Origin: Mycobacterium sherrisii
Lineage (GTDB): Bacteria; Actinomycetota; Actinomycetes; Mycobacteriales; Mycobacteriaceae
Reading direction: 5' to 3'
Length of the DNA: 64,000 nucleotides
Assembly: GCF_002102355.1 (NCBI RefSeq)
Contig: NZ_LQPT01000084.1
Span: 91,618-155,617, forward strand
In this document: positions 8,789-61,493 of the stretch, piece by piece
Layout: each line of letters starts with the position of its first letter
How positions within the stretch are numbered: the first letter of the stretch is position 1
Position numbers and translations under genes: made by a program
Notes under the pieces: model-generated
The model's input: only the letters and a program-made list of their open reading frames with translations
What the model was told of the DNA's origin: nothing
The model's database searches: none

Positions 8789-8801
8789 CCAACCGATTCA
8801 A

Positions 8802-43284: not shown

Positions 43285-43318
43285 CGGTGTTCGCTGACAC
43301 ACCCGTCGCGATCCGAGC

Positions 43319-44512: not shown

Positions 44513-46108
44513 TCAGCTTTTGGTGATGAGATCTGCTGCTTTGGCACCAATGAGGATACTCGCCGCGTTGGTATGGCCACGGATGATGGTGGGCATGACG
44601 GAGGCGTCAGCGACACGCAGTCCCCGCACACCTCGGACCTTGAGTTCGGGGGTGACGACACTGTTGGGATCGCTGCCCATTCGGCAGGTACCCACAGGGT
44701 GGTAAAGGCTGTGGGACTCGTTGTTCAGCGCCCTCTCGAGATTCGCTTCACTCGTATCGTCCGCACCGAGGGGACGGGCAATTTTGCCAAGCACACTGTT
44801 CAGTGACGGCGCATCGGCGACTTTCGCGCAAATCCGTAAGCCTTCCATGATGGCGGCGCGGTCCCTTCCACCGTTGTCGGAAAGATAGCGAGGGTCAATG
44901 ACGGGCTTGGCTTTCGGATCGGGCGAACGCAGCGTGATGCATCCGGTGCTGTGCGGCTTGGTCAGGATCGATCCCATGGTGACCGCATGCCCGTAGGGTT
45001 CGCCAAGTCCTGCGTCGAACAAGGGGCCAGGCCCAAACAATAACTCCAGGTCAGGCAGAGCCATTCCGGCATTGCTGCGGACAAACCCGTAGGCTTCGGC
45101 AGCCGGTGAAGACAGCATGCCGCGACGTCGAACCAGATAGTTGAGGATCTGACGGGGCTTCCCCGCCCCAAACAATGTGTCGGCGTCTACTTCGAAGCCG
45201 AGAACCGCCACTAGGTGATCGCGCAAATTCTTCCCAACCTGCGGTGCATGATAGACAATATCAATACCGTGGCGAGCAAGTTCTTTACCGTTGCCGATGC
45301 CCGAAAGCATAAGCAGCTGTGGAGAATTGATTACCCCTGCCGATAGGATTACCTCGCGCGTGGCGCGAACGAACTGGATTCGGCCGTCGATTTCGCATTC
45401 CACGCCAACCGCCGCGTTGTCGAGGACACGCACTCGAGTTGCGGTCGCATTGAGGACCAGGGTGAGGTTGCGCCGCTTTAGGGCGGGCCGTAGGTAGGCA
45501 TCGGCTGTACTCCATCGACGGCCCCGAAGCTGAGTAACCACTGCTTGACTAAATCCGTCAGGCTGCGCAAGATTGGGGCGCTCTACCGAAAAACCGCACT
45601 CCTGCACCGCTTTCAGCCAGGCCGCCGTTAGGCGATTGGGGCTGCGCTGTTCGGAGACGTACACAGGCCCGCCCGCGCCTTCATCCGGTTCGCGCGCGCC
45701 TTGGACGCTCTCGATACGCCGGAAGTATTCGACGACTCGATTGAACGACCATTGCTCCCCGGCGCACTGCGCCCATTCATCGTAGTCAGCCGCGAACCCA
45801 CGCACCCACATCGTGGCGTTGGTCGACGACGATCCGCCCAGGGTCTTGCCGCGCGGCCAATGGATGCACCGACCGTTGAGCCCAGACTGGGGCTCAGTCA
45901 AGTAATCCCAGTCGATTTCGCTGCGGAACAGCTGAAGCCAAGTCACCGGCGTGTGGATACGCCGATCGGTGTCTTTGGGTCCGGCCTCGAGCACCACCAC
46001 GCGATTACGCGGATCGGCGCTAAGCCGTTCCGCGATCACCGAGCCGGCCGATCCCGTACCCACCACAACGTAGTCGGCCGCGATGAGGCTGGAAATGTGG
46101 TTATTCAT
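44513..46108 (-). CDS. GMC-family flavin oxidoreductase
   Basis: The ATG at 46108 gives 531 residues; GAAGAG and a more distant GGAG lie upstream. The FAD motif [18 protein letters not shown] is at the N-terminus, then [18 protein letters not shown] and, near the end, [10 protein letters not shown] with the proposed catalytic His and [17 protein letters not shown]. This is the choline-dehydrogenase-like GMC layout. The likely substrate is an alcohol. The upstream frame reaching 46375 continues into IS21 sequence and is not used. Its neighbours are mobile elements. Confidence 0.88.
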
Positions 46109-46486
46109 CTCTTCACCAACTCCAATGCTTGCTGCTGGTTGCCACGAGTCATCAGGCGGGTCTAACATCGGCTTTTCCGATACAACGTCTCTGGTTGTGA
46201 ATGCCGCGGCGGTCTGATCACCACTGTGGACCCGACCGAGCGGCTTCGCTTGTTCACGCGCGTACGGAATTTGCATTCTTGCGACCACGTATCGGACTGT
46301 GACAACACCGCCCGCAAACCGCGGTGCGTAGGCAACCCTCAAGGAGTACTGACCGCGCTCGCTGAAATTCCCCACTGACGCTCATCGAAATTCCCCACCC
46401 GTGCGGCTGCGCCGAGAAGGGCGGGCCTCCCTCGAAGCTGCTGGTGTCTGACGCCAGCAGCTCCACCGAAGGAGGCCCGCTTTCTC

Positions 46487-47849
46487 ATGCTCACATGGGA
46501 GGACGATGTGGAAGTACATGCCCTACACAAACGTGGTTGGACGATCTCGGCGATCGCCCGCCACACCGGTCACGATCGCAAGACGGTCCGCAAGTATCTG
46601 GCCGGTGACGGCAAACCCGGGGTCCGCGCCCGGCCCGACCCGGACCCGTTTGATCCGTTCGTCAACTACGTCACCGCCAGGCTGAGCGAGGACCCACACC
46701 TGTGGGCCCGCACTCTGTTCGACGAACTCGAGGAGCTGGGATTCGGGCTGTCGTATCAGAGCCTGACCCGCAACATCCGGACCCGGAATCTGCGGCCGGC
46801 CTGTGAAGCCTGCCGGACCGCCACTCAGCGCCCGAACGCGGTGATCCCACACGCCCCGGGTGATGAAAACCCAGTGGGACTGGCTGGAATTGCCCGACCC
46901 ACCGCAATCGTGGGGGTGGGGCAAGACCGCTCACCTGTTGGTCGGCTCACTGGCGCATTCCGGGAAATGGCGCGGCTTCTTGGCGCCCTCGGAGGATCAG
47001 CCGCATCTGGTCGCCGGCCTCGACCGGGTGACCCGCGGACTCGGTGGACTGACCCGGGTGTGGCGGTTCGACCGGATGGCCACCGTGTGTGACCCCGGCA
47101 GCGGAACGGTGACCGCATCGTTCGCCGGGGCGGCCAAGCACTACGGAGTGTCGGTGGCGATCTGCCCGGCCCGGCGCGGCAACCGCAAGGGCGTGGTCGA
47201 GAAGGTCAACCACACCGCCGCGCAACGCTGGTGGCGCACCCTGGCCGACGACACCACCGTCGAGCAGGCGCAGGCCAGCGTGGATCGCTTCGCGGCGGTC
47301 CGCGGTGACACCCGGCTGCGGGCCACCGCTGATGGCCGCTCCTCAGTCGCCGTGGTGGCCAAAACGGAGCCCCTGCAACCGGTGCCGGCGGTGGCGTATC
47401 CGGTGATCGTCGCCGAGGCCCGCACCGCCTCGCGCCAAGCGATGGTGTCGTACCGCGGCAACCGCTACTCGGTACCCCCGGAACTGGCCGCCGCCCAGGT
47501 GGTCGTCAGCCATCCTGTCGGTGGACAGTTTTGCGACATCGCCACCATGAGCGGGATTGTGATCGCCCGGCACCGGATGGCTGCCGACGGGCTCGGGGTG
47601 ATGGTGCGTGACAGCGGCCATGTCATCGCCCTGGACACCGCCGCGACGGCCACCGCCACCACCGGACGCCCGCACCGCCGCAAGGAACGCATCCCACCCG
47701 GCACCGCGGCCAAAGCCGCTGCCGCACAACTCCTTCAAATCAAGCAGCCATCCACCACTGCCATTGAAACATCAACTCCGTCAACCAATTCCACCATCAT
47801 CGATCTGTCTGCCTACGAGCGGGCCGCCCAGAACAGGACCATCCAATGA
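46487..47849 (+). pseudogene. istA: istA transposase with one-base insertion
   Basis: The first frame (from 46487) has MLTWEDDVEVHALHKRGW and a homeodomain-like region, SAIARHTGHDRKTVRKYL. It runs to VIPHAPGDE near 46868. The rest, QWDWLELPDPPQSWGWGK to the C-terminal end, lies in the frame starting at GTG 46860. An AAAA run at 46866-46869 has one base more than needed for a continuous protein of about 450 residues. Other IstA features such as KGVVEKVNH and VSYRGNRYSVPPELA are intact. It is pseudogenised unless the extra base is a read error. Confidence 0.85.
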
Positions 47850-48500
47850 GCGCTGCCCACGGTGCTGGACCAAGCCACCGCCGAGAACCTGTCACTGGCC
47901 GTCGCGTTGGAGCGACTGCTGGCCGTCGAAGTCGAGGCCAGCACTGCCCGCCGACTGGCCGGCCGGCTGCGGTTCGCCTGCCTGCCCACCCCGGCCACGC
48001 TGGCCGACTTCGACGTCGATGCCGCCGCCGGGATCGACCGCAAACTCATCGACGAGCTGGGCACCTGCCGCTACCTGGAGTCAGCGACCAACATCTTGCT
48101 CATCGGGCGGCCGGGTACTGGAAAGACGCACTTGTCGGTCGGGCTGGCAAGGGCTGCAGCACATGCCGGCTACCGGACGTACTTCACCACCGCCGCCGAT
48201 CTGGCGGCCCGCTGCCACCGTGCCGCGATCGAGGGACGCTGGGCCACCACCATGCGCTTCTACGCCGGCCCAACGCTGCTGGTGATTGATGAACTGGGCT
48301 ACCTTCCGTTGCCCGCCGAAGCCGCATCAGCGTTGTTTCAGGTTGTCTCCCAACGGTATTTGAAAACCAGCATCGTCATCACCACCAACCGCGGCGTGGG
48401 CGCCTGGGGTGAGATCCTCGGCGACACCACCGTGGCCGCCGCCATGCTCGACCGCCTACTGCACCGTTCCGTGGTCATCAACCTCGACGGCGAGTCCTAA
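47846..48500 (+). pseudogene. istB: istB helper with frameshift and early stop
   Basis: IstB should start at ATG 47846, overlapping the istA stop as ATGA. Removing one C from CCC at 47856-47858 joins ATG-AGC-GCT-GCC to VLDQATAENLSLAVALERLL. The protein has the Walker A motif IGRPGTGKTHLSVGL, Walker B LLVIDELGYLPL and VITTNRGVGAW. It ends at LDGES followed by TAA (48498-48500), while RLRDHHAAAE continues in the same frame after the stop. So there is also a nonsense change, probably TAC to TAA, that removes about 25 residues. Confidence 0.8.
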
Positions 48501-48651
48501 CGCCTTCGCGACCACCACGCCGCCGCGGAAACCCTACACCGGACCGCCACCGGCACCCGCCAACAACTACCAACAACTACACTGACCGCTACTCACAGGT
48601 GAGGAATTTCAGCGAGCATAGCCGGGGATTTTCGATGAGCGCCGTCACAGG

Positions 48652-49086
48652 CGGGCGGCAGGGATGAACACGGCTGCGAGCCTGCACGCCAGGCTTCTCG
48701 TCGGCACTGAGCACGTAGTCGTTCTCACCCAACGGCTCGCCGTCGAAGACCCGCGCATAGAGATCGAGCACCCGTGCTGCTTTGATGGCAAAGTGCGGGT
48801 CACGCGGGGAGATCCAGGACCGATGTTGCCACGGCTTGAGCGCGTCAGCGCTCAAGCCAGCGACGCACTGTAGAGGCTGACACCGACTCGACCACGCCGC
48901 GCCGCGCGGCCTCAACCGCCAGGTCCGGACAGCTCCACTTGGCCAGTGGCACATCGCTTTGGTAGGCAGCTCGCAAGCCAGAGCCTTTACTTCGACCACC
49001 GCCGTCGCCGAGAACCGGCGGGGCCGACCGGGACTCGGGCGGTCCCGTAGACCATCGATGCCGTGTTGCCAAAACCGGCGCCGCCA
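48652..49086 (-). pseudogene. IS630-family transposase, C-terminal part
   Basis: Reading from 49086 downwards: WRRRFWQHGIDGLRDRPSPG, then AVVEVKALACELP, then in another frame DVPLAKWSCPDLAVEAARRG, back to LSADALKPWQHRSWISPRDP and VLSADEKPGVQARSRVHPC. This follows the order of an IS630 transposase from the second half of the HTH to the start of the catalytic core. Two compensating frame slips are present and the rest is cut by the IS21 right end. Its missing N-terminus is at 54500-54649. Confidence 0.8.
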
Positions 49087-49533
49087 TGCCTCAGCGCGCT
49101 GCGGGAACACCGCACGATCGTGATCAACGACATGGCCGTCGAAACACGATGGCCGGCGTTCTGTGCGGCAGCCACCGACTTGGGCGCCCGCACGCTGCTG
49201 TCGTTCCAGCTCTTCGTCGTCCAACAGAACTTGGGCGTGCTCAACCTGTACGGCGACCGCGGCGGCGCATTTTCCGAAGAATCCATTGTCATCGGCGGAT
49301 TGCTGGCTCAGCACGCGTCGGTGGCACTCATGGGCGCGACCGCCGAAGCGCAATTCAACGATGCCTTGAACACTCGTGACATCATCGGCCAAGCCAAAGG
49401 CATCATCATGGAAGGCTTCAACACCGATTCGGTGGCCGCCTTTCAGCTGCTCTGCAAGCTGTCCCAAGAGACCAACTTGAAGCTCGTCGAGGTCGCCCGC
49501 AAGCTCGTCGCGAGCCACGGCGACTCGAGCTGA
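49084..49533 (+). pseudogene. GAF-ANTAR regulator, C-terminal half
   Basis: This holds the later part of a GAF domain (CLSALREHRTIVINDMAVET, LLSFQLFVVQQNLGVLNLYG) and a complete ANTAR domain (ALNTRDIIGQAKGIIMEGFN and LLCKLSQETNLKLVEVARKL). The GAF N-terminus is missing; the sequence switches to IS630 transposase (opposite strand) at CCA 49084-49086. The N-terminal half lies at 54647-54889 on the minus strand and joins in frame at the shared Pro codon CCA. Confidence 0.88.
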
Positions 49534-49579
49534 TGGTAACGGCTTACCGGCATGATTGCCCGCTCGTGCGAGTCACCCA

Positions 49580-51133
49580 CTACATCCCATGCGCCGATTT
49601 GATGAATTGCGCTGCGCGCTCGCCGATTACAACGCAGGGCGCCATGGTGTTGGCGGTGGTGATGCGGGGCATGATCGAGGCGTCGGCAACGCGGAGGTTT
49701 TCGATGCCGTAGACGCGGAGCTGTCCGTCCACCACCGACATCGGGTCGCGACCCATCTTCACAGTTCCGCAGGCGTGCCAGTACGTGCAGACGGCGTCGC
49801 GCAAGTACGCTTCCAGTCCGTCGGCCGTCAGGTCGCCCGGCATGACCTCGCGCGCGACGAAGGGGCGTAGCTCGGCGGAATTGCCGATCTGCCGCAGGGT
49901 TTCGACACACGCGATCGCGGACTTGAGGTCGTCCGGATGCGCCAGAGCGTTGGCCTCGATCCGCACCGGGTCGGTGGGGTCGGGGCCCGACAGCGATACC
50001 TGCCCACGGCTTTTCGGATGCGTCGGTGCTCCGAATAACGTCCAACTGTTCTGTGGCAGCCCATATTTGGCGATGGCTTCCGGTGTTGCCTTGGGGAAGG
50101 GGCCCAAACACGCAAACAGGTCGGGTTCGTCGTCTTCGGCGAACCCGGAATCCCAGAACAGTGCGGCCTCGGCGCGAGCTTGGGCATGGATTCCTTGCGG
50201 GAACTCCCATACGCAGTCAATGCCGTAGTGGTCGTGGAAGTTTCGGCCCACACCGGGCAGGTGCTGGCGGACCCGGACCGCGATGCGGCGCAGTTCGTCT
50301 TGGTTTCCGATACCGGACAGCATCAGCACCTTGGGGGTGTGGACGGCGCCCAGGGAAAGGACGACCTCGGACCGGGCGGTCACGCGGCGCATCGCCCCAC
50401 CGTGAACGACCTCGACGCCGGTGGCGCGGTTGGCCTGGAAGGTCACGGCCGTCACGAGCGCGTGCGGCACCACCGTGAGGTTCGGTCTGGCGAGGAACGG
50501 GCCGAGGTAACTACGGAATATCGACTGGCGCTTACCGTCTCGGCAGCGCAGATCGATGAGGGCGGCGCCGCGGGTGTCTTCCATCAAACGGCCATTGGGA
50601 CTTGGGAAGGTCGGGATTCCCACTGCGCTGGCCGCCTGCACCGTCGCATGGGTCACGCCGTGTGGCTCCTGCACAGGTTCGACGAACAGCAACCCACCGG
50701 TACCGCGGTGATCCGGTTCCCCCGTACCGTGCCAATCCTCAATCCGTCGGTACAGCTGAAGGACCCGCTCGTAGCCCCAGGCCGGCTCACCGGACTCGGC
50801 TGCGAAATGGTCCCAGTCGCTGCGGTGTCCGCGGGCCCAGATCATCAGGTTGATGCTCGACCCACCACCCAGGACTTTGCCCATCGACAAGGCGATCGAG
50901 CGGTGGTTTAGTCGTGCGTCGGCTTCCGAGGCAAAGGCCCAGTCGCGTTCGCTGCCCAGGTTCGTCGGCCACTGGCTCGCCTCGGTGACGCTCGGTAGCT
51001 CGTCGCTACCGCCGGCTTCCAGCAGCAGAACCGTCACGTCGGGGTTTTCGGCCAACCGGCGAGCGATCACCGAACCCGACGACCCAGCCCCACACACGAC
51101 TAAGTCGTAAGAGACATCCCACCACGCACCCAC
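49580..51133 (-). CDS. GMC-family flavin oxidoreductase
   Basis: GTG 51133 is chosen because GAGGAG lies 7 bases upstream, giving 517 residues beginning MGAWWDVSYDLVVCGAGSSG. GMC features are the FAD motif VVCGAGSSGSVIARRLAE, GKVLGGGSSINLMIWARG, LSLGAVHTPKVLMLSGIG, and the C-terminal YWHACGTVKMG with the probable catalytic His, then ADASIMPRITTANTMAP. The frame upstream to 51289 overlaps the TetR gene and is not used. It is divergent from that TetR gene, with a perfect operator in between, so it is probably TetR-controlled. An alcohol substrate is expected but not known. It shares only family-level similarity with the GMC gene at 44513. Confidence 0.9.
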   Translation of the reverse strand: MGAWWDVSYDLVVCGAGSSGSVIARRLAENPDVTVLLLEAGGSDELPSVTEASQWPTNLGSERDWAFASEADARLNHRSIALSMGKVLGGGSSINLMIWARGHRSDWDHFAAESGEPAWGYERVLQLYRRIEDWHGTGEPDHRGTGGLLFVEPVQEPHGVTHATVQAASAVGIPTFPSPNGRLMEDTRGAALIDLRCRDGKRQSIFRSYLGPFLARPNLTVVPHALVTAVTFQANRATGVEVVHGGAMRRVTARSEVVLSLGAVHTPKVLMLSGIGNQDELRRIAVRVRQHLPGVGRNFHDHYGIDCVWEFPQGIHAQARAEAALFWDSGFAEDDEPDLFACLGPFPKATPEAIAKYGLPQNSWTLFGAPTHPKSRGQVSLSGPDPTDPVRIEANALAHPDDLKSAIACVETLRQIGNSAELRPFVAREVMPGDLTADGLEAYLRDAVCTYWHACGTVKMGRDPMSVVDGQLRVYGIENLRVADASIMPRITTANTMAPCVVIGERAAQFIKSAHGM

Positions 51134-51173
51134 GGTCGGTCTCCTCTTCTCGGTTGCTGTCACCCTAATAGGC

Positions 51174-51196
51174 CAACCGACATACTTAGTCGGTTG
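51174..51196. promoter_or_regulatory. Probable TetR operator
   Basis: CAACCGAC (51174-51181) and GTCGGTTG (51189-51196) form a perfect 8-base inverted repeat with a 7-base spacer, ATACTTA. It sits 40 bases upstream of the GMC start and about 55 bases before the TetR start, between the divergent genes. Size and place suit a TetR-dimer site controlling both. Confidence 0.7.
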
Positions 51197-51251
51197 TGGC
51201 CGAATGAAAACACGCATAACCAGGAGAAAGAAACTATGTAGGATGAGAGAC

Positions 51252-51839
51252 ATGGCCAGGCGAAGTGACAGCAAGGAGCGAATGATCACGGCGGCTCGCC
51301 GGCTGTTCCGGGCCCACGGCTATGCCGGTACGGCCTTGTCGGACGTCGTCGCCGAGAGCGGTGGTCCACGCGGTTCCCTGTACTTCCACTTCCCGGGCGG
51401 AAAGGAAGAGCTGGCAACCGAAGTGGCACTGCTACATGCGGCCGACGTCATCTCGCAGGCCAACCGCACCGCCGGTGCGACCCACACCGCCGCAGAATTC
51501 GTCGCCGGGTTCCTCGGGCACATCCGGGATAGCTTTGTCGCCAGCGATTACACCCAAGGCTGCGCCGTTGCGCCCATTGTTCTGGAGGCCACGCCCGTAT
51601 CACAGCCGCTGAGCGAGGTCACCCGACGCGGCTTCGGCGACCTCATCGCGACGGTCGCTGCGCGCCTGGAAGAGAAGGGCGTCGGGCATGAGCGCGCGCG
51701 CGAATTGGGCAGCCTGCTTTTCACAACGATGGAAGGGGCGCTCATCGTTGCCCGGGCATTGCGCAGCCCCGAACCGTTTGACTCGGCCATCGCATTGCTG
51801 ACCGGGTGCGCACAAGAGTCCGTCAACGCGCGCCAGTAG
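51252..51839 (+). CDS. TetR-family regulator
   Basis: The ATG at 51252 gives 195 residues; ATG 51243 is an alternative. The N-terminal helix-turn-helix reads RMITAARRLFRAHGYAGTAL, then SDVVAESGGPRGSLYFHFPG and GKEELATEVA, typical of TetR. The C-terminal part (about 70-190) has LEATPVSQPLSEVTRRGFGD and LLFTTMEGALIVARALRSPE, as in the LmrA/YxaF-like subgroup. It is divergent from the GMC gene and probably represses both through the 51174-51196 repeat. The ligand is unknown. Confidence 0.9.
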   Translation: MARRSDSKERMITAARRLFRAHGYAGTALSDVVAESGGPRGSLYFHFPGGKEELATEVALLHAADVISQANRTAGATHTAAEFVAGFLGHIRDSFVASDYTQGCAVAPIVLEATPVSQPLSEVTRRGFGDLIATVAARLEEKGVGHERARELGSLLFTTMEGALIVARALRSPEPFDSAIALLTGCAQESVNARQ

Positions 51840-51860
51840 GCTCGGACTGCCCCCGCGCCC

Positions 51861-52290
51861 GTGGCCGCCGACACGGCGGCAACGCAAAGTCTGACCCTTC
51901 GCGCCGGCTTGGATAACCTATCCGCAGACGATCGGGCCGTGGTCCTTGCCGAACAATGCGAAGGTTGCCTTGCGGAGAATGCGTGCGACGAGTGGCGGGC
52001 TCGCCGAGTGGCGGGGGAGGACCAGCAAATCGACGACCTAGTACCGGTGGGCACACCGATCGATTTGGACAACTGTGCCCGGGAACCGATTCACACCTGT
52101 GGGGCTTGATCGCCTGCCTCCACTACGCTGGCCTGCATCTGCCGCCGTTCGGTACCCGGGCTGCGGTCGAGTTCCTGGGGTCGACGTTGTCGATGCGCCT
52201 CGTCGATCGGTTCGAGGACGACCACTTGCACAACCGGCTGGCCGAGCAGGCGGTACTGGGCAAACTCTAAGAAGACGACAACACACTCGA
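51861..52290 (+). pseudogene. Decayed phytochrome-like (PAS2-GAF) gene
   Basis: One frame (51861-52109) ends in GTPIDLDNCAREPIHTCGA, the start of a phytochrome PAS-2 domain. A second frame continues with LWGLIACLHYAGLHLPPFGT, then AAVEFLGSTLSMRLVDRF, resembling the end of a phytochrome GAF domain. Between them about 250 residues of PAS and GAF are missing. It reads AVLGKL and then a stop at 52268. The gene has therefore lost the chromophore domain to an internal deletion. The original was perhaps a SpoIIE-type phosphatase or histidine kinase with a phytochrome sensor; this is a guess. Confidence 0.5.
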
Positions 52291-52295
52291 CGGGC

Positions 52296-52500
52296 TCAAG
52301 TCCTCGCCGAGGACTCCCGCAGGGACTGGTCCGACCGGAGGGATCGCATCAGCAGCGTAGACCCGTCGCAAATGTCGACAGCGACCGATCTCCGCGGCTT
52401 TATCTGCAGACCGCTCAGCTGGGTGCTGCCCTTGCGTCTCACGGGGCCTGTGATGAATGCCACCTTGCCTTCGAGTTGCACAGCAAAAACGCCGCGAGAA
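52296..52500 (-). pseudogene. Mycofactocin-type SDR, N-terminal remnant
   Basis: The frame has VQLEGKVAFITGPVRRKGST, and then SVAVDICDGST, matching the N-terminus of mycofactocin-associated SDRs (compare FDGKVAFITGAARGQGRSHA and IIAIDIC at 61494). About 10 residues are missing between the two motifs, and nothing recognisable follows. The frame's continuation upstream to 52682 shows no SDR features. Confidence 0.55.
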
Positions 52501-52616
52501 CTGGCGTCGTTATGCCAATTGAAGTAGTTCGTGCCGTCAGCTTTCAGTTGCGCACGGAGTCGGATGACCTGAACAGAGGGATAGTATTGAATACGTTCGC
52601 TTTGTCGGCCGCTAGT

Positions 52617-52871
52617 CATGGAGGTTGAGGCATGCCTCGAGGTGGGCCGACTGCTCTCTGGGTGGTTATGTATTGCGACCATAGCGCCGCATTAGTTATG
52701 GCGACGCCCCAGCGTTTATCCGCAGAGGCAGGGTTAAGGGCGTGAGGTGAAGGCCAACACACAGTCGCTGTCGACGGTCGCTGTGCAGCCGACGGCCAGG
52801 CCGAACGGGGGGCGGCGAAACGCCTATTCGATTGAGGCCGTGGATATCTGGGATATCCGGGAGGTCGGTTC
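52617..52871. other. Upstream region of AraC gene, no gene seen
   Basis: I see no coding sequence here. It probably holds the AraC promoter. GGGAGG lies just before the GTG start at 52872. Confidence 0.4.
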
Positions 52872-53867
52872 GTGACTTGCTGTGATTGCCTGGGCACGGA
52901 GCAGCTGGAAGCGCTTAATGAGTTCATTTCGCAGCGACTGGCCCCGATGGAGGTGTCGACTCCGCATATTGAGAGCTTTCGCGCTTGGGGGCGCGCCGCC
53001 GATCTCGGCGTCGTGCAATTGACCAATCTTTGGGTCCGCAATGCGTTCGTCGCGCGGCGCACCAGAAAGCTCGTCGCCAGCGGTCCGGACCACCTGAAGG
53101 TGATTGTGCAGCTGAACGGTACTTCCTGCGTTTCGCAGGGTGGCCGCGAGGCCGTTTTAGCGCCTGGCGACTTCGTTCTGTATGACACGAGCCGCCCGTA
53201 CCAGATAGTCAGCACCGGGTCCTCAAGGATGCGTGCCGTGACATTTTCGCGCGACGCGTTGCGGCTGGCCCCGTCACAACTGGAGCGCGTTGCAACTCAT
53301 CCGATAAGTGGTCGCCACGGCTTGGGACTGGTGGTGGCACAGTATCTTTCGAATATCACTCGACAGGTCGACGCCGGTGGACGTTCCTTCTCCTGCCATT
53401 TGGCCGATGCTACTTTGGATCTACTCGCAGCGTTGTTCACCGAGCGGCTGGATGGCAGCGGGGAAAGCAACATCAGTGACGGTAAAATCGGCTTGCTATT
53501 CCGTGTTCGGGCCTACATCGAGCGGCGACTTGGCGACCCACGCCTGGGTGTCGCCGAGATCGCTGCGGCGCACCATATTTCCATACGCTCCCTGCAGAAG
53601 CTGTTCGAAACCGACGGACAGACGGTAACTGGTTGGATACGTACCCGGCGGATCGAGCACTGCCGAAGGGATCTTGCCAACGCCTCGCTTGCAGGCCAGT
53701 CGGTTGGCTCGATCGCCGGCAAGTGGGGACTGGTGGATCCGGCACACTTCTCACGACTGTTCAAGTCGACGTATGGGTTACCTCCGCGTGAATACCGGGC
53801 CGGCGCACTGGGCTTGACATCGGCTGGGATCGGCTCGAACGCGCGGGCCCAGGTGCAGCAGTCATAG
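52872..53867 (+). CDS. AraC-family regulator
   Basis: The GTG at 52872 gives 331 residues. The N-terminal part is an AraC-binding-like cupin domain (AADLGVVQLTNLWVRNAFVA, then VIVQLNGTSCVSQGGREAVL and APGDFVLYDTSRPYQIV). The C-terminal (about 215-315) has two HTH motifs: IAAAHHISIRSLQKLFETDG and IAGKWGLVDPAHFSRLFKST, ending YGLPPREYRAG. It is a paralogue of the AraC protein at 62596: VARRTRKL, LAPGDF, DTxRPY, PISGR and HHISxR are shared. The adjacent divergent SDR is decayed, so its target may be lost. Confidence 0.88.
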   Translation: MTCCDCLGTEQLEALNEFISQRLAPMEVSTPHIESFRAWGRAADLGVVQLTNLWVRNAFVARRTRKLVASGPDHLKVIVQLNGTSCVSQGGREAVLAPGDFVLYDTSRPYQIVSTGSSRMRAVTFSRDALRLAPSQLERVATHPISGRHGLGLVVAQYLSNITRQVDAGGRSFSCHLADATLDLLAALFTERLDGSGESNISDGKIGLLFRVRAYIERRLGDPRLGVAEIAAAHHISIRSLQKLFETDGQTVTGWIRTRRIEHCRRDLANASLAGQSVGSIAGKWGLVDPAHFSRLFKSTYGLPPREYRAGALGLTSAGIGSNARAQVQQS

Positions 53868-54024
53868 CAGTAATGTGGCATCTTGTACAGTTCCGCATAT
53901 AATCGAATAAGGTCGTCGCTCCGGCGTAGTCGGTGGCGCTGAAAGTCACGGACGAAGGGCGACCCACCCAGGCGTCGGGGCCTCGTTTAAACCTACCCCC
54001 AACTTTGGGCCCAGAGACTAGTGG

Positions 54025-54324
54025 TCACGCCCGTTGGTTCGTCGGGGTTTGGGTCCAGGCGGTTGGCTCGTTGAGATAGAGGCCGCAGGCGCAGTCGAGG
54101 GCTTCTTCGGGGTATCCGCTGGGTAGGACGCTGTCTTGGTAGCCGTTGCGGCTGGCGAGATGGATCGCGAAGCCCCAGCTGTTGGCTGAACCGCCGTAGC
54201 GCAGGCGAAACAGCGGCAGTGTGGTGCCGTTGCGCAGCTGTCCGTTGACGTAGGCGAAGCCACCGTGGTGGCGGCCGGCCAGCTGCGGCCAGCGTTGGTT
54301 GGCCCTGGCTTTCGGGTCTGCCGC
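54025..54324 (-). pseudogene. Fragment of a mobile-element-associated hypothetical
   Basis: Minus-strand frame with KARANQRWPQLAGRHHGGFA, then YVNGQLRNGTTLPLFRLRYG, GSANSWGFAIHLASRNGYQD and EEALDCACGLYLNEPTAW. From recall, similar proteins of unknown function occur near mycobacterial mobile DNA. The N-terminus is missing at the IS3 remnant border near 54320, so it is partial. Confidence 0.45.
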
Positions 54325-54345
54325 ACGATCAGGTGACAGTTTCGA

Positions 54346-54455
54346 TCACGCGGCCTGACTGGCCGGTGTGGTCATGATGGCTTCGAATTCGATGGGGGTC
54401 AACCGGCCGAGCCCGGCTTGCCGGCAGCGGCCGGTGTCGAGCGACAAACGGTCTA
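54346..54455 (-). pseudogene. IS3-like transposase, last residues only
   Basis: Reads LDTGRCRQAGLGRLTPIEFE and then AIMTTPASQAA before a stop at 54346. LGRLTPIEFEA is the typical C-terminal end of IS3-family OrfB. Only about 35 residues remain. Confidence 0.45.
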
Positions 54456-54499
54456 TGTCGATATGAAGCTGTGATCGGATTGTTCTTTGTGATGGGTAG

Positions 54500-54649
54500 C
54501 GGCGGCTGCTGCTGGCCCGCGCCGGTCGAGTCAGCGGTGAGCACCGCGAGGTAGTGCGCGCGCGGATCGTGCTGGCCGCCGCTGACGGCGCGTCGAACGC
54601 CGCGATCAGCCGGACCCTGGGTGTCTGTGAGGACACCGTTCGTAAGTGG
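54500..54649 (+). pseudogene. IS630-family transposase, N-terminal half of HTH
   Basis: Reads RRLLLARAGRVSGEHREVVR, then ARIVLAAADGASNAAISRTL and GVCEDTVRKW, the first helix-turn-helix of an IS630 transposase. An in-frame stop precedes it at 54497-54499. It breaks at TGG 54647-54649 (the Trp codon), next to the GAF-ANTAR N-half. It continues in frame with the C-terminal part at 49086 downwards if the segment is inverted. Confidence 0.78.
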
Positions 54650-54889
54650 GCCCTCATTGAGTTCGGATTGCAGCGCGTCGAGTTTGCCCACCAGAGGATG
54701 GCTGGGAACTCGGGACTCCACTGCGCGGTCGTGAATCAGTGATATTCCGACCCAGCGGGCACCGGGCACGATCGCGACAGCACCGTCGACTATTGCCTGC
54801 AGCGTCGCCTCAGTGTCTTTCTGATTCTGCATCTCGATGGCAAGCGCGCCCAAGACTTGTGCAAGGCCGCCGCCGGACTCCGGGACCAC
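54647..54889 (-). pseudogene. GAF-ANTAR regulator, N-terminal half
   Basis: The GTG at 54889 gives VPESGGGLAQVLGALAIEMQ, then DTEATLQAIVDGAVAIVPGA and LDALQSELNEGP, the first part of a GAF domain. It stops at the Pro codon CCA (54649-54647), after which IS630 sequence follows. It lies 39 bases after the glycosyltransferase operon stop on the same strand, so the intact gene was the last gene of that transcript. The later half is at 49084-49533. Confidence 0.85.
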
Positions 54890-54928
54890 GTTCTTGACAA
54901 TAACCCGGCGACATCGGATCGGCCCGCG

Positions 54929-55774
54929 TCACGCCCTTCGTCGGTCAGCGTGCTGCGGACGTCCTTCGGCCCCGCGGACGATGAGACCGTCCGCCTCGAA
55001 CGCGGCAAGCCAGCCTTCCATGGGCCACCACCCCCATCGCTGGTGAAAAATTGCCGCGTTGCGCAGGATGTCGTCGAGGTGCTGAGTCGGCGGATCCGCC
55101 GTCGGGTGGAATTGGTGGAACGCATGAGCACCTCCCACCCAGCGCATCGGCACCTGCCGCGCGGCCGCGCACTGGCCGAAATCGGTGTCTTCGCCGCCAT
55201 ATCCGCGATATCGCTCACAGAACCCGCCGATCCTTTGCCAGGTGGTCGCGGTCAGTGCGAACGAGAGCGACCAAAACAGCGCATACTCGCGCGTGTCCAC
55301 GACCTGCCCGTCGGGCGGGTCCGGCCGGGCAGGATGCGGATTACGTTGCGTCTCAAGCTCGCTCATCGCGTAGCCCTGCGGTCCCGGCGGCGCCAGATAG
55401 GTGACCGGACCGCACAACAGAGCATCGGCGTGTTCGGGCTGGGCCGCGGCGCGGCGATAGCACTCGATCATCCGCGGACTCGGGATGCAGTCCACATCGA
55501 GAAACACCAGCAGTTCGGCCGATTCGCGCAGGGCGGCGGCGGCCCCCTGATTGCGGGCGGCGGCCATCGGTAGCGGCTCGCCGGCATCGAGTTCAACGAC
55601 CATCGCGCGCGTGTGTTCCGCGGCAACGATGTCGGGGACTCGCGGATCACCGAGTGCGACCACCACGTGCAGGTCGGGTGGCGGTCGGCTCGACGCCAAT
55701 CCGCGCAGCTGTCGACGCAGGTGGCTGCCCCGTCCGCGCACCGCGGTGATCACCGCGGTTTTCCGGGTTTTCAT
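54929..55774 (-). CDS. Glycosyltransferase family 2-like protein
   Basis: The ATG at 55774 overlaps the previous glycosyltransferase stop as ATGA and gives 281 residues. The N-terminal GT-A fold begins KTAVITAVRGRGSHLRRQLR, and the metal-binding motif is LVFLDVDCIPSPRM (DVD). Later it has RIGGFCERYRGYGGEDTDFG, the family's GGxDxD-like motif, and HQFHPTADPP. It may transfer sugars to a lipid or envelope acceptor. It is the last gene of four overlapping glycosyltransferases. Confidence 0.88.
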   Translation of the reverse strand: MKTRKTAVITAVRGRGSHLRRQLRGLASSRPPPDLHVVVALGDPRVPDIVAAEHTRAMVVELDAGEPLPMAAARNQGAAAALRESAELLVFLDVDCIPSPRMIECYRRAAAQPEHADALLCGPVTYLAPPGPQGYAMSELETQRNPHPARPDPPDGQVVDTREYALFWSLSFALTATTWQRIGGFCERYRGYGGEDTDFGQCAAARQVPMRWVGGAHAFHQFHPTADPPTQHLDDILRNAAIFHQRWGWWPMEGWLAAFEADGLIVRGAEGRPQHADRRRA

Positions 55775-56769
55775 ACCGCCGCCAACGTCGCGTGGTGCGC
55801 CGCGGTCGTCTCGATCGCCCGGGCGGCGCGCGCCGCCGCCCCCTGGACCTGCCAACGTTGCCAGTCGCGCGACTCACTGGACAGGGCGCGCAGCAGCACG
55901 TCGGGCCATTCCCGATCGTCGGGCCATCCCGGCAGCACGGTCGCGAGCCGGTGTCGTTGCAAGGCCGTTGCCGTGGCGTGTTGTTCATCGAATGGCCGGG
56001 GCTGGGGTATGACGACGGCGGGACGGCCGGCGGCCGCGATATCGGCGATGCAGCTTTGTCCCGCGTGCGTGACGACGAGGTCGGCAGCACAGATCTGGGG
56101 CCACGGGTCGGCAACCCAGCCGCTGGTGCCGCCGAGCACCGTCCACGTCGTTCCCGCGCAACGCGGCGCGCCGGCACTGGCCCCATCGAAATCCCCATCG
56201 GCCCCGCCCAGAACGAGGACGCGGAGCTGCTGGTCAGACCGGATGGCCGCGCGATCGCGTCCCTCGAAACGGCTGATGCCTCCGACATAACTCGTCTTGG
56301 CCGCGTGCGGGCGCAACCAGGACGGCTCGTCGACTTCGCGTGGCCAGGCGGCCACGATGTGATCGGCAATGCGATGGACGAGTTCGTGCGGGCCATCGGT
56401 ACGGTTGCCCGGCAGGGCCATCACGATCACCGGGACACCGAGCAGACGAACGAACAACGCGAGTTCCACGGAGACATCGCTCACGAATGCCCGCGGCTGT
56501 TCCGCCGCCACCCAACGAGCCACGGCATCCATGCGCGCCCCGTATCCGGCGTCGTGATGGGGCGCCCAGTGCAGGCCGCCGTGCGCCGTGGGATGACACA
56601 CTCGCTCTGACCGATCATCACGCGGTAAGTTCACCACCCCCGTGAACGGGTGTGGCGCAGCGACATTCAGCGAAGTCAGCACCGTCACCGGTTGGCGAAG
56701 GTGACGGCAGATGCTCGCCGCCCGCGCCAAGTGACCAAAACCGTGATGATGGACGTAGTAACCGATCAT
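55771..56769 (-). CDS. GT-B glycosyltransferase (MurG/MGT-like)
   Basis: With ATG 56769 (GCGAGG upstream) the product has 332 residues and starts MIGYYVHHHGFGHLARAASI, the HGxGHxxR acceptor-side motif of GT28/GT1-like enzymes. The nucleotide-sugar side has VLGGTSGWVADPW and DLVVTHAGQSCIADIAAAGR, then PRPFDEQHATA. The upstream glycosyltransferase frame overlaps its first roughly 150 bases in another frame, which is unusual. It overlaps the GT2 gene by four bases. The sugar is not known. Confidence 0.85.
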   Translation of the reverse strand: MIGYYVHHHGFGHLARAASICRHLRQPVTVLTSLNVAAPHPFTGVVNLPRDDRSERVCHPTAHGGLHWAPHHDAGYGARMDAVARWVAAEQPRAFVSDVSVELALFVRLLGVPVIVMALPGNRTDGPHELVHRIADHIVAAWPREVDEPSWLRPHAAKTSYVGGISRFEGRDRAAIRSDQQLRVLVLGGADGDFDGASAGAPRCAGTTWTVLGGTSGWVADPWPQICAADLVVTHAGQSCIADIAAAGRPAVVIPQPRPFDEQHATATALQRHRLATVLPGWPDDREWPDVLLRALSSESRDWQRWQVQGAAARAARAIETTAAHHATLAAV

Positions 56770-57856
56770 GTTTGGCCTCGCTAGGGTTGTCGACCATGCG
56801 GCGGTACACGTCCAGATAAGCGCCCAACATCGCTTCCAACGAGCAACGACCGATTGCGTATTCACGTACCCCGCTGCGGCGGAGACCGACCGCCGCGGGG
56901 ATGGCGTCCGCCATCTCGCCGACATCTTCGCCAGCGACGAGCCGGCCGGATTCGGGCCCGACGAGTTCGGGGATGCCGCCACGGGCGAAGGCGACGACCG
57001 GTGTGCCGCAGCACATCGCTTCGGCGACCACCAAGCCGTACGGCTCGTCCCACACGGGGGTCACCAACGCCGCTTCCGCGGCACCGACGACGCGTGCCAG
57101 CTGATCCTGGTCCAGGTGACCGGCATAGCGGACGTCCGCGCCCAACCTGGGCGCCACTTCGGTGGCGAAGTACTCGGTGTCGGAGATCGGACCGGCCAGC
57201 ACTAGTGGCTTACCGGCGCGTCGCGCCGCACTGATCGCCAAATGCGGCGCCTTCTCGGCGGTGATGCGGCCGAACCAGACCAGCGGCCCGCCACCCGGGC
57301 CCAGCGGCCACCGACGCGTGTCGATGCCGTTGGGAATCACCGTGATACGGCTGATGGATTGGCTCCACGAGCGTGCGGTGTGTTCGGAGACGGCAGCGAA
57401 CTGGGTGCCGACGCCGGCCGACGCGTCGATGGCCGACTCCAGCCACGGTGTCGGGGGCGTGTGCACCGTGGTGAGCATCGGAATCGACAGCATCGGGGCC
57501 ATCGCGACCGGCAGATAGTGCAGGCTGTGATTGTGGACGATGTCGAAATCGTCCCGCCCCGACTCGGCCAGTCGCAACATCAGCGTCAGGTACGCATGGT
57601 GATCCGCCATGAACCCTTCGGCCGGCATCGAGACGTCGGCACGTGCGATGCGCGATATGCCTAGCGGCCGCACCGCAAGAGTGCGGCAGTCCAGATCTCC
57701 GTCGGATCCTGCTGCGGCAAAAAGGGATACCCGGTGTCCGAGCTTGGCCAGCGCGCGTGCCAGATGCCAGACATGCGCCTCCAGACCGCCGGCGAACGGC
57801 TGGCTGACGGCAAACCGGCTGGAGGCGATCAGCGCGACCCGCAAGCTATCGTTCAT
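56618..57856 (-). CDS. GT4-family glycosyltransferase
   Basis: The ATG at 57856 overlaps the previous gene stop as ATGA; the product has 412 residues. It has the GT-B/GT4 features VSQPFAGGLEAHVWHLARAL, FDIVHNHSLHYLP, ITVIPNGIDTRRW, LVWFGRITAEKAPHLAI and the catalytic-side WDEPYGLVVAEAMCCGTPVV. The frame ends after YRRMVDNPSEA with 51 further residues (to LTA) that overlap the next gene by about 150 bases. The usual GT4 end is near DNPSEA, so a frameshift or unusual overlap at the 3' end is possible. Confidence 0.88.
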   Translation of the reverse strand: MNDSLRVALIASSRFAVSQPFAGGLEAHVWHLARALAKLGHRVSLFAAAGSDGDLDCRTLAVRPLGISRIARADVSMPAEGFMADHHAYLTLMLRLAESGRDDFDIVHNHSLHYLPVAMAPMLSIPMLTTVHTPPTPWLESAIDASAGVGTQFAAVSEHTARSWSQSISRITVIPNGIDTRRWPLGPGGGPLVWFGRITAEKAPHLAISAARRAGKPLVLAGPISDTEYFATEVAPRLGADVRYAGHLDQDQLARVVGAAEAALVTPVWDEPYGLVVAEAMCCGTPVVAFARGGIPELVGPESGRLVAGEDVGEMADAIPAAVGLRRSGVREYAIGRCSLEAMLGAYLDVYRRMVDNPSEAKHDRLLRPSSRFWSLGAGGEHLPSPSPTGDGADFAECRCATPVHGGGELTA

Positions 57857-58935
57857 GCCGAGACCGCTCGGTACACATCGCCGTGGGCGGCTGCGACTTC
57901 GACACGTTCGGCGCGACGCTGCGCCCAGGTCGCTCGTGGTGCCGAGGTCCCCGCTGCCCACCGTCGGTATGCATCATCGACTGCACGCCGCAGTGATTCG
58001 GGGTCGAAACGATTCTCACTGAAATCGAAGACCCCGCAGGGCCGTTGCTGACCGTAGAAACCGCAGCCCGGGGCAATGACGGCGGTGCCGAGATCGAAGC
58101 ATGCTTCCAGCCACCCGGAATGGCTGCCGAAGCGGTATGGCAGCACCGACACCGTCAGCGACGCCAGGTAGTCCCAGAATTCGCGGTCGGAGAAATACGG
58201 GTGTACCCGGACCCGAACATGATCGTATCGTCCGTATTCCAGCAGCGCCGCGCCGATTTGCGGTGCATACCAGTGATTTTGCGGGTCGAAGATTTCGTCG
58301 TGCACGTTGATCTGGAGCACCGCATGGGGCAGCGCTGACAGGATGTCGGTGAGGGCGTCCACGACCGGCAGGGGGTCCATGTTTGCCCGCAGGCTCTTCG
58401 CGTGGACTCCGACCACGAAGCGGTCACCGTTGTCGCGCGGCCGTAGGATACGGTCGCTTTCCAACACGTGCGGATGAGGAAGGACGCGGCATCGGCGTCC
58501 CCACCGATCCCAGATCGTCTGTGCCGCACCGGTCGTCAGTGTGATCAATTCGTCCGCGGCCGCAACGAGGACCTCCTGCTGACGGTCGTGGGCGGCCGAA
58601 TCGCGGTGATGCGGGTTGCGCAGGTCGTGCACCGTGTAGACCAGCGGTTTACCGTGCGCCTTCAGTTCCCGAACCACCCCGGCGAGCAGCTCCGGACCTA
58701 TGGCGTCGAACCCGAAATGGACATGGAACACATCGAAGCTGTCGTGGTTCTGGCTGACCCAACCCGGCTCGAGCATCAGCGGAGGCCACCAGCCGCCCGG
58801 AACGGTCCGGCCGTCGCGGGGCTCCGGATCAGGCAGGCGCACAATGCTTTCCGTGCTTTCCGTGCTTTCCGCTCCCGCGGGCACGGAAAGGTGACGCACG
58901 TAGACGTGCGAGGCGGGTACCGATGCAACACGCAC
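57853..58935 (-). CDS. Glycosyltransferase, GT4-like
   Basis: GTG 58935 with GGAGGA 9 bases upstream gives 360 residues. It has SFDVFHVHFGFDAIGPELLA, LVYTVHDLRNPHHRDSAAHD, and VSVLPYRFGSHSGWLEACFD, the core of a GT-B enzyme. Near residues 22-31 it carries STESTESIV, encoded by three direct 9-base repeats. Its stop overlaps the next gene's ATG. It is the first gene of the four-gene cluster, and no obvious promoter was identified by eye. Confidence 0.82.
   Translation of the reverse strand: MRVASVPASHVYVRHLSVPAGAESTESTESIVRLPDPEPRDGRTVPGGWWPPLMLEPGWVSQNHDSFDVFHVHFGFDAIGPELLAGVVRELKAHGKPLVYTVHDLRNPHHRDSAAHDRQQEVLVAAADELITLTTGAAQTIWDRWGRRCRVLPHPHVLESDRILRPRDNGDRFVVGVHAKSLRANMDPLPVVDALTDILSALPHAVLQINVHDEIFDPQNHWYAPQIGAALLEYGRYDHVRVRVHPYFSDREFWDYLASLTVSVLPYRFGSHSGWLEACFDLGTAVIAPGCGFYGQQRPCGVFDFSENRFDPESLRRAVDDAYRRWAAGTSAPRATWAQRRAERVEVAAAHGDVYRAVSA
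58845..58871. repeat. Three tandem 9-base repeats in glycosyltransferase gene
   Basis: TGCTTTCCG occurs three times in a row (58845-58853, 58854-58862, 58863-58871). On the coding strand each encodes a Ser-Thr-Glu-type triplet, so repeat gain or loss would keep the frame. Confidence 0.75.
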
Positions 58936-59125
58936 TTAGGTCTGTCCTCCCACGCACCCAGCATTCGATCGTGCCGGCGTAGCCTGCCGGTCTCTGGCTG
59001 GTGTCAGCCTTTGTAGGGCTACCCGGGCCACAGCGGACCAAACTGGGGCGCGTCGGAAAGAAACCCGGTGCTGTCGCCGCGACGACGTGCCATTGGCGGC
59101 GCCGGGCGGTTCCCCGCGACCTGGC

Positions 59126-59566
59126 TCAGGGCGAGAGTTGGACGTGACCGCCCGGCGGACGCGGTGGCGAAGGCTGCGCCGGCGGAGGCGGGGGCGCCGG
59201 CGCAGCGGGCGCGGGGGCCTGCGGTTGGGGGGCGGGTCCCTCCGGGGGTTGCGGTGCGGGCGCCTGCGGCTGCTGCGGGCGTGGTTGCTGGGCTCGCGGC
59301 GGCGCCGACGCTACCGGCGGTTCGAGGGGTTTCGCGGTCGGCGCCGGGATTGCCGGCGGATCGGGGGTGATCTCGCCACGCGGGGCCGGCCCGATCAGGT
59401 GCGCCGCGAGGGTGTGCGGGCCCACCGCCGACCGGGCCGTCCCCGCACCGAGGTCGGTCGCGCCGCAGCACAGCAGGACGATCACCGCCCACCTGGCACA
59501 TCGTCGTCGGCTGTGCACGGTCCGCGGATTCGACGGCGCGGCCTGTCGACGGGTCGGCGTGGTCAT
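59126..59566 (-). CDS. Proline-rich secreted protein
   Basis: The ATG at 59566 gives 146 residues; the frame continues to 59659. A hydrophobic signal-like segment WAVIVLLCCGATDLGAG follows a basic stretch. The second half is Pro/Ala/Gln-rich with PAP and PQ repeats, such as PRPQQPQAPAPQPPEG, and no Cys. It is probably exported or cell-wall-associated. No family is recognised, and such low-complexity frames can be coincidental in GC-rich DNA, so confidence is moderate. Confidence 0.5.
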   Translation of the reverse strand: MTTPTRRQAAPSNPRTVHSRRRCARWAVIVLLCCGATDLGAGTARSAVGPHTLAAHLIGPAPRGEITPDPPAIPAPTAKPLEPPVASAPPRAQQPRPQQPQAPAPQPPEGPAPQPQAPAPAAPAPPPPPAQPSPPRPPGGHVQLSP

Positions 59567-59722
59567 CGGCCCACGCAGACGTCGCGCGGCTGCGCCCATC
59601 CCCAGGTCCACGCGAAAGTCCAGTGGTGATACATGGTTCCAACCAGTTACGATGTCCATGATCGCAGGCGCTTTGTGCCTCCATTGTTACCAGTTGATGT
59701 CGATTCGTCAGATGTCAGCTGG

Positions 59723-60118
59723 ATGACACCGAAGAGACCGGATCCTGTCGTGCACACCCGCATCCCCCACCTCGCCGGGGCGGTGGTTGGCCTCGCGGCG
59801 GCGCTCACCGCGGCACTCGGATACGCCGGGGCGGCCAAGGCCGATGCACAGGAGGACCAGTTCGTCGCATTACTTGCCCAACTGCAGATACCGGTGATCG
59901 ACAATGTGCCGGGGCTGGTGTATCGGGCCCAGGAAATCTGCGGCGAGCTCGACCACGGTACCCCGTTCCAGTCGGTGGTGGATGAGGAAACAAACACGAC
60001 GTACGCGAGTAGTCCGTCCTTACACCTCGTGCCGGATCGCGTGACGCGGACGGCGGTCAAATTCGTCACGGCATCGGTGACCGTCTATTGCCCGCGCTAT
60101 CAAGGATTACTTCCTTAG
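59723..60118 (+). CDS. DUF732-like secreted protein
   Basis: The ATG at 59723 gives 131 residues. The signal peptide has HLAGAVVGLAAALTAALGYA and a likely cut near AKADA. The mature part is DUF732-like: EDQFVALLAQLQIPVIDNVP, then VYRAQEICGELDHGTPFQSV and, at the end, VKFVTASVTVYCPRYQGL, giving two Cys that could pair. These are small mycobacterial exported proteins of unknown function. Its end lies 6 bases from the convergent P450 gene. Confidence 0.78.
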   Translation: MTPKRPDPVVHTRIPHLAGAVVGLAAALTAALGYAGAAKADAQEDQFVALLAQLQIPVIDNVPGLVYRAQEICGELDHGTPFQSVVDEETNTTYASSPSLHLVPDRVTRTAVKFVTASVTVYCPRYQGLLP

Positions 60119-60124
60119 GTCTGG

Positions 60125-61177
60125 TTACCATTTCAGCGGCACCGACTCGGGAACCCACCCGTTGAATATGCCCTCGGAGAATACGCCGTATGGTCTGGGA
60201 TGCCAGGCCTTGGGAACGTTGCCGGCCTGCCAGTCGAACTCGAACTGCGGAATCCCGGCGAGCCACACCTCGAAGAACGCGCTCAGCAGATCCCGGGCCA
60301 GGTGCGAGGCCGGGCACCGGTGCGGGCCTCCCCCGAAACTCCAATGCCGGTGCGCCCCACCTAGTTTCATTTCCTGACCGGACAACGCGTCGGACTCGTC
60401 GCGGTGCACCAGACCGACGCACAACTCCACCGGGGACCCGGCCGGGATCGTGGTTTCACCGATAGTCACGTCACGGGTTGCGACGCGCGAAACCGTCTTC
60501 GCCCCGCCATCCAGCCGCAGCAACTCTTCGATGAAAGCCCCTTGACGGCTTGGGTTCTCGCGAAGTTCCTGCTGAAGTGCGGGCTTGCGGCCCAGCAATG
60601 CCAGCCCGGCCTTGATGGGGAACGAGGCGAACATGAAACCGCGGATCACCGTCGCCATGAGGCCCATGACCTCTTCGTTGCTGAGCGGTTCGGCGGCGAG
60701 GCGGGTGATGACATCGGGACCGCCCACGGGCGCGCGGCGGACCTGTCCGACCAGGTCGGCGGTAACGGCGTTGATCGGGATGTCCCTCGGCAGCCCGCAG
60801 ACCAATCCGGAGGCCGTGAAGCACACCACCTCGGCGACTTGCGCGGCATCGCAGCGGCGGAATTTTGCTACCACGCCCACGCCCTCCTCGATGAGCCCGC
60901 GTATCGATGTGAGCATTTCCCGCGAACTGCCCGGGTTGAACAACTCCACCAGGATCGCGTGGTAGGGGCCGAACGGCCGATTGCCGGGCATCAGTTCACC
61001 TTGGCGGCTGCCGAAAACCTCGCCATCGCGCATGGCGGCCAGGACATCGTCGCGCTGCCACAGCACGTACGCCCCCTGCGGCCCCGGCAGTACCCGCTGG
61101 CCCGCTTGCTCGGCGGCCGCGTGCCACTCACGAAAGGCCGCGGCCGCAGTCTCGTCGGACCGCATGACTTCCTGCAC
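60125..61177 (-). CDS. Cytochrome P450, short
   Basis: GTG 61177 with GGAGG 8 bases upstream gives 350 residues, shorter than the usual 390-410. The EExxR helix is AFIEELLRLDGGAKTVSRVA, and the haem site is HWSFGGGPHRCPASHLARDL with the axial Cys. The start of the fold is ALWQRDDVLAAMRDGEVFGS-like, and LFNPGSSREM follows. The oxygen-activating I-helix (A/G)GxDT is not seen; MGLMATVIRGFMFASF occupies its place. It may therefore be a peroxygenase-like or catalytically altered P450. No ferredoxin gene lies next to it. Confidence 0.85.
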   Translation of the reverse strand: MQEVMRSDETAAAAFREWHAAAEQAGQRVLPGPQGAYVLWQRDDVLAAMRDGEVFGSRQGELMPGNRPFGPYHAILVELFNPGSSREMLTSIRGLIEEGVGVVAKFRRCDAAQVAEVVCFTASGLVCGLPRDIPINAVTADLVGQVRRAPVGGPDVITRLAAEPLSNEEVMGLMATVIRGFMFASFPIKAGLALLGRKPALQQELRENPSRQGAFIEELLRLDGGAKTVSRVATRDVTIGETTIPAGSPVELCVGLVHRDESDALSGQEMKLGGAHRHWSFGGGPHRCPASHLARDLLSAFFEVWLAGIPQFEFDWQAGNVPKAWHPRPYGVFSEGIFNGWVPESVPLKW

Positions 61178-61493
61178 GCCTCTCGCCTCCGGACCAGGTC
61201 CTCGCGCACCTCCGACGGTGCCACCGGCAACTCCGATGCCGCAACTCTAGCGTCAAGGTTTGCTCCTCGCCGCCGCACGCGAGGCCGCCCGGCAGATCGG
61301 CGGACGCCATGGGTTATCTGACGCCATGCCCGACTGGTTGACGAGAGCCGAAGATCGGCACCTTTAGACAAGGACCGTGCACTGCAATCCAACGCCGTGC
61401 GGCCCGGGGGGCGGCACAGTTGAAAGAGATGTCGAAGGCTGCCTGGCTGCGATGTCTGCGACGTTGGGGCCGGGGGGAAACGATGGGGGCGAG

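What the first reader, a model, noticed from the sequence alone, without database searches (positions are those of the whole stretch)
49087..54646. One 5.56-kb inversion explains two split genes at once
A GAF-ANTAR regulator is cut into halves at 49084 (+) and 54647 (-). An IS630 transposase is cut into halves at 49086 (-) and 54649 (+). The halves of each gene join in frame only if 49087-54646 is inverted: NEGP then CLSAL for the regulator, and VRKW then RRRFW for the transposase. Both borders share the triplet CCA/TGG. This is direct sequence evidence for one inversion that disabled an antiterminator belonging to the glycosyltransferase operon. If it is reversible, it would be an on/off switch. 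The 3-bp homology favours a one-time event or end-joining, but mixed orientations in the population are worth testing.
Basis: seen in the sequence. Interest (0 to 1): 0.8.

Follow-up and report, generated by a model that had tools for sequence, protein, structure and literature searches.

The report
Small inversion splits two bacterial genes
A 5.56-kb piece of a mycobacterial chromosome appears to have flipped once, cutting a regulator gene and an already damaged jumping gene in half; it looks like an ordinary genome rearrangement, with no sign so far of being a switch.

Summary
The regulator pieces (49087-49533 +, 54647-54889 -) are halves of one GAF-ANTAR gene. Searched apart, they match homologues side by side with zero gap in 16 of 16 loci that I chose and zero net gap in 62 of 80 named loci (one off by 12 nt, 17 without N-half hit; the sets overlap). 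The IS630 pieces do so in 6 of 8 loci. One inversion of 49087-54646 explains both splits. In one relative (G031) the TetR-GMC pair from inside the segment lies the other way round relative to the CYP block outside it, as predicted.

The borders share only CCA/TGG (6.8% of random pairs share 3 bp or more), show no inverted repeat, and are unique in the genome. Ku and LigD-type genes are present. Likeliest cause: a one-time event, probably end-joining of two breaks.

Not supported: an on/off switch, and "antiterminator of the glycosyltransferase operon": closest homologues do not lie beside such an operon, and mycobacterial ANTAR is reported to repress translation (PMC8164766, passages). Without reads, misassembly or mixed orientations cannot be excluded. 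Interest is low.

The parts
49087..54646 (.). segment inferred to have been inverted
   Evidence: both split genes are resolved by one inversion; G031 gene order
49087..49533 (+). C-terminal part of a GAF-ANTAR regulator (148 aa)
   Evidence: GAF_2 and ANTAR in Pfam; 69% identical to the G076 homologue
54647..54889 (-). N-terminal part of the same GAF-ANTAR regulator (81 aa)
   Evidence: 68-73% identical to the six best homologues other than G168, G206; no Pfam hit alone
48642..49086 (-). C-terminal part of an IS630 transposase, apparently truncated by the IS21-type element
   Evidence: 46-49% identical in eight IS630 loci, six of them annotated IS630 transposases; plasmid search
54500..54646 (+). 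N-terminal part of the IS630 transposase (HTH)
   Evidence: HTH_23; lies directly before the C-part match in 6 of 8 IS630 loci
49084..49086 (+). CCA at the left border (3-bp shared triplet)
54647..54649 (+). TGG at the right border (same triplet inverted)
49580..51289 (-). GMC oxidoreductase inside the segment (homology begins at about residue 61 of this ORF)
   Evidence: GMC_oxred_N/C; 76% to G031
51204..51839 (+). TetR regulator inside the segment
   Evidence: TetR_N and TetR_C_13_2; 73% to G031
52872..53867 (+). AraC-type regulator inside the segment
   Evidence: AraC_binding_2 and HTH_18; 84% to G248
54929..58935 (-). four-gene glycosyltransferase operon outside the segment
   Evidence: GT1 by Pfam; the other three named from collinearity with it in relatives, not scanned by Pfam
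59126..61177 (.). marker block outside the segment: proline-rich ORF, small exported protein, cytochrome P450-like ORF (names by eye)
   Evidence: DNA match of about 59125-61216 in G031; tblastn finds the small protein (72%) and the P450-like ORF (73%) there, not the proline-rich ORF
46357..48641 (+). IS21-type element beside the IS630 remnant
   Evidence: IstB; inverted repeats I10 and I16

Best explanation
One inversion of 49087-54646 in an ancestor of this strain broke a GAF-ANTAR gene and an IS630 remnant at the same time; the ends swapped partners and left four gene pieces. Shown here: the pieces match as halves of two genes, the borders share 3 bp only, the borders are unique in the genome, and the gene order of one relative fits. 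Inferred: two double-strand breaks were rejoined the wrong way round by end-joining (Ku and LigD-type genes are present), once and not reversibly. Inferred effect: no full-length protein from this GAF-ANTAR gene; the C-half still has an open frame from GTG 49063 and might give an ANTAR domain with half a GAF domain.
For: Halves abut with zero gap in 16 of 16 chosen loci, zero net gap in 15 of 15 hand-picked pairs and 62 of 80 named loci, the sets overlapping; IS630 halves in 6 of 8. In G031 (L097) TetR(-)-GMC(+) precede the small protein(+)-P450(-), the order expected without the inversion. G035 and G152 have a GAF-ANTAR match after GT1 in the same direction, as the N-half lies here. The left border has one place in the genome and the right border one place plus a 22-base match; the IS630 C-part is single-copy; up to 40 candidates were scored in each of these. 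Border inverted-repeat score is within background. Ku, E 1.7e-54; LigD_N, E 1.7e-41, in a 754-aa open frame about 7 kb from Ku on the same contig, and a second match on C99. Mycobacteria are described as having Ku/LigD end-joining (PMC3519483, passages).
Against: The gene-order evidence rests on one relative, which shows no match to the glycosyltransferases or the GAF-ANTAR between the markers, and which has a second, less similar GMC gene nearby in the other orientation (L097 1775-3362). In G110 and G164 the listed GMC and P450-block matches are 400 kb or more apart, and in G076 on different contigs; those searches scored at most two candidates per genome. In G053 the GAF-ANTAR is convergent with the glycosyltransferase operon. 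Two of 8 IS630 loci do not abut, and 18 of 80 named loci do not show zero net gap (17 of them for want of an N-half hit). A 3-bp match is only weakly non-random. No strain or sister species with the other orientation was found.
Confidence: 0.88

Rival explanations
1. Assembly error: two misjoins in a 128-contig draft make an apparent inversion.
For: The genome is a draft and no reads were available. IS sequences lie close by: an IS21-type element and, at 54314-54436, a stretch with five other places at 84-87% identity.
Against: Both borders lie in sequence that is unique in this genome, share only 3 bp, and are exactly reciprocal in two genes; misjoins usually fall in long repeats (general knowledge).
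Confidence: 0.05
2. Reversible inversion that switches the regulator on and off.
For: Flipping the segment would alternately join and split the gene (anatomy).
Against: No inverted repeat beyond 3 bp at the borders (none of the 25 of 40 pairs shown), no site-specific recombinase among the ten proteins scanned, and one border lies in a decayed transposase gene.
Confidence: 0.02
3. Transposase-driven rearrangement, in which the IS630, the IS21-type element or the nearby IS remnant moved one end.
For: IS sequence lies within 450 bp of the left border and beside the right border.
Against: The breaks lie inside the IS630 coding sequence and not at the end of any IS recognised here, and this IS630 is probably defective.
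Confidence: 0.05

Closest known systems
Inversion by illegitimate recombination, such as bacterial Ku/LigD end-joining
   Same: reciprocal junctions with only a few shared bases; Ku and LigD-type genes present
   Different: that these enzymes made this inversion is not shown
Phase-variable invertible elements with inverted repeats and a site-specific invertase (recalled)
   Same: a kilobase-scale segment whose orientation affects a gene
   Different: no inverted repeats found at the ends, no invertase among the proteins scanned, breaks inside two unrelated genes
Mycobacterial GAF-ANTAR regulators
   Same: 15 homologues of 224-239 aa carry both halves in one open frame (L084 left out, as its match breaks frame)
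   Different: here the gene is split
IS630 family transposases
   Same: both parts match annotated IS630 transposases
   Different: split, apparently truncated, and probably frame-shifted

Membership tests
One-time inversion by illegitimate end-joining | reciprocal junctions in two interrupted genes | tested here: met
One-time inversion by illegitimate end-joining | no or only short homology at the breakpoints | tested here: met
   3 bp; 6.8% of random pairs share 3 or more
One-time inversion by illegitimate end-joining | end-joining machinery (Ku, LigD) in the genome | tested here: met
   Ku; LigD_N in a 754-aa open frame and a second match; other LigD domains not searched
One-time inversion by illegitimate end-joining | single fixed orientation | not testable with these tools
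   no reads available
Site-specific invertible switch | inverted repeats at both ends | tested here: not met
   none among the 25 of 40 pairs shown
Site-specific invertible switch | adjacent site-specific recombinase | tested here: inconclusive
   none among ten proteins scanned; other ORFs not scanned
Site-specific invertible switch | both orientations in a population | not testable with these tools
   no reads available
GAF-ANTAR regulator (as one working gene) | GAF and ANTAR in one open frame | tested here: not met
   split here; C-part alone holds ANTAR and part of GAF_2; one frame in 15 homologues
IS630 transposase (as one working gene) | whole transposase in one open frame | tested here: not met
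   split, apparently truncated near 48641 and out of frame in part

The most novel reading that the evidence does not exclude
The segment still flips in some cells without long repeats, alternately joining and splitting the GAF-ANTAR gene: a repeat-independent regulatory switch.
Probability: 0.02. Interest if true: 0.6.

Novelty: new member of a known kind. Interest (0 to 1): 0.18.

Why it matters
It is a clean natural example of a small inversion with both breakpoints placed to within 3 bp, in a genome that has Ku and LigD-type genes, and a reminder that annotated gene fragments kilobases apart can be halves of one gene. If it were reversible it would be an unusual switch, but the evidence points away from that.

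Tried and rejected
A first scan of named genomes with the C-half alone gave 76 pattern matches and no relative. A second, with an alignment of homologues, kept the best 80 of 550 loci; one of them is titled Vibrio cholerae (L142), which I take for contamination and left in the count. I looked for a relative with this locus in 396 genus genomes, 297 relatives and 396 relatives of G076; these samples overlap, searches scored at most two candidates per genome, and asked only for close C-half matches. None of the listed matches other than the window's own spans the segment, but a sister species could have been missed. A plasmid search with the IS630 N-part found nothing at E 1e-4. A distant DNA search of plasmids with 48560-54700 gave matches to single genes only among the 30 rows shown of 316. 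Rfam at gathering thresholds and ARAGORN found nothing in the window; I did not check whether Rfam holds a family for ANTAR-target RNAs, so a target RNA is not excluded.

A site-specific switch was considered and set aside for lack of repeats. Paper searches listed no title about this locus (7 of 7 listed; 15 of 19; 12 of 37; 10 of 10; 10 of 76). PMC8164766 and PMC3519483 were seen as passages only; the others as listings.

Full report
Setting. The window lies on a 155-kb contig of a 5.56-Mb, 128-contig draft genome. The species was not identified. So this is a mycobacterium in the broad sense. Because that genus holds a listed germ, I searched the pieces of broken genes apart and rebuilt nothing.

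Observation. The left border lies after 49086: the C-part of an IS630 transposase runs leftward on the minus strand and the C-part of a GAF-ANTAR gene runs rightward on the plus strand. The right border lies after 54646: the IS630 N-part runs into it on the plus strand, and the GAF N-part runs into it on the minus strand. Pfam finds part of GAF_2 and ANTAR in the 148-aa C-part, HTH domains in the two IS630 parts, and nothing in the 81-aa N-part.

Are they halves of one gene? I fetched 16 homologue loci, chosen among the best of the 51 other genomes with an N-half hit. In 16 of 16 the N-half match ends at residue 81 and the C-half match starts at residue 1 in the next base on the same strand; in L084 the C-half match later breaks into two frames. 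In 15 of 15 locus pairs picked by hand the net gap is zero after allowing for trimmed residues; 7 of those loci are also among the 16. In 80 named loci the tally is 62 with zero net gap, 1 off by 12 nt and 17 with no N-half hit at E 1e-5; some are the same genomes again. The six closest homologues (L071-L075, L077) are 65-74% identical over the two halves. For the IS630, 8 loci were examined: 4 abut exactly (L111, L112, L113, L118), 2 abut after allowing one trimmed residue (L110, with a weak N hit, and L114), and 2 do not (L115, L117). The IS630 seems to be cut near 48641 by an IS21-type element, and by eye part of its C-part resembles relatives better in another frame, so it was probably already inactive.

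Direction. In G031 (locus L097) the order is TetR(-) 7577-8191, GMC(+) 8318-9838, then 4.4 kb of other ORFs, then the small exported protein(+) and the P450-like gene(-). In the window the last two have the same orientation, but TetR and GMC are flipped. An inversion of 49087-54646 predicts this, with G031 showing the older order. It is one genome; it shows no match to the glycosyltransferases or the GAF-ANTAR between the markers, and it has a second, less similar GMC gene nearby (L097 1775-3362). In G110 and G164 the listed GMC and block matches lie 400 kb or more apart, and in G076 on different contigs (at most two candidates scored per genome). G035 and G152 carry a GAF-ANTAR C-half match of about 40% directly downstream of the glycosyltransferases in the same direction, which is the direction of the N-half here, but with no N-half hit at E 1e-8. 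G053 has the regulator convergent with the operon.

Mechanism. The borders share exactly 3 bp. Random position pairs in 40,000-60,000 share 3 or more in 6.8% of 200,000 draws. Local inverted similarity of 300-bp stretches around the borders is within background: 76% of random pairs score as high or higher. Sequence across the left border has one place in the genome, and across the right border one place plus a 22-base match; in each search 40 candidates were scored. This argues against homologous recombination and against a repeat-induced misjoin. The genome has a Ku gene (control: 1 of 14 genomes) and two LigD_N matches, one in a 754-aa open frame about 7 kb from Ku (control: 1 of 14). Mycobacteria are described as having Ku/LigD end-joining (PMC3519483, passages). 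End-joining is therefore the likeliest route, but it is an inference.

Function. A survey of actinobacterial ANTAR RNAs says that in M. tuberculosis and M. smegmatis ANTAR binding represses translation (PMC8164766, passages). The tie to the glycosyltransferase operon is weak: 1 of 16 fetched homologue loci and 1 of 80 named loci hold the operon. Looked at the other way, 4 of 9 fetched operon loci (L079, L099, L100, L102; not L088, a 5.9-kb contig, L098, L101, L104, L105) hold a GAF-ANTAR C-half match, but L079 and L099 were fetched because of one. The genome has two other matches along the C-half at E 1e-20 or better, with open frames of 237 and 297 aa, so this does not look like the loss of its only gene of the kind.

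Verdict. A real and probably one-time inversion that splits a regulator gene and a transposon remnant; ordinary in kind.

Noticed in passing
46357-48641: IS21-type element with inverted repeats at its ends, directly beside the IS630 remnant, which it seems to cut off.
   Followed up: partly
54314-54436: Stretch with five other places in the genome at 84-87% identity, on contigs 48, 61 (twice), 102 and 103; by eye the end of an IS3-type transposase gene.
   Followed up: no
52296-52682: Short open frame that by eye resembles the start of a short-chain dehydrogenase; perhaps a gene remnant.
   Followed up: no
19700-20128: A second match to the GAF-ANTAR C-half in the window, minus strand, 40% identical, in a 297-aa open frame.
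   Followed up: no
44513-46375: A second GMC oxidoreductase-like ORF on the minus strand, whose annotated start would lie inside the end of the IS21-type element; tblastn homology begins at about residue 101.
   Followed up: no
L142: A contig titled Vibrio cholerae 35D carries an actinobacterial-type GAF-ANTAR gene; perhaps contamination of that assembly.
   Followed up: no
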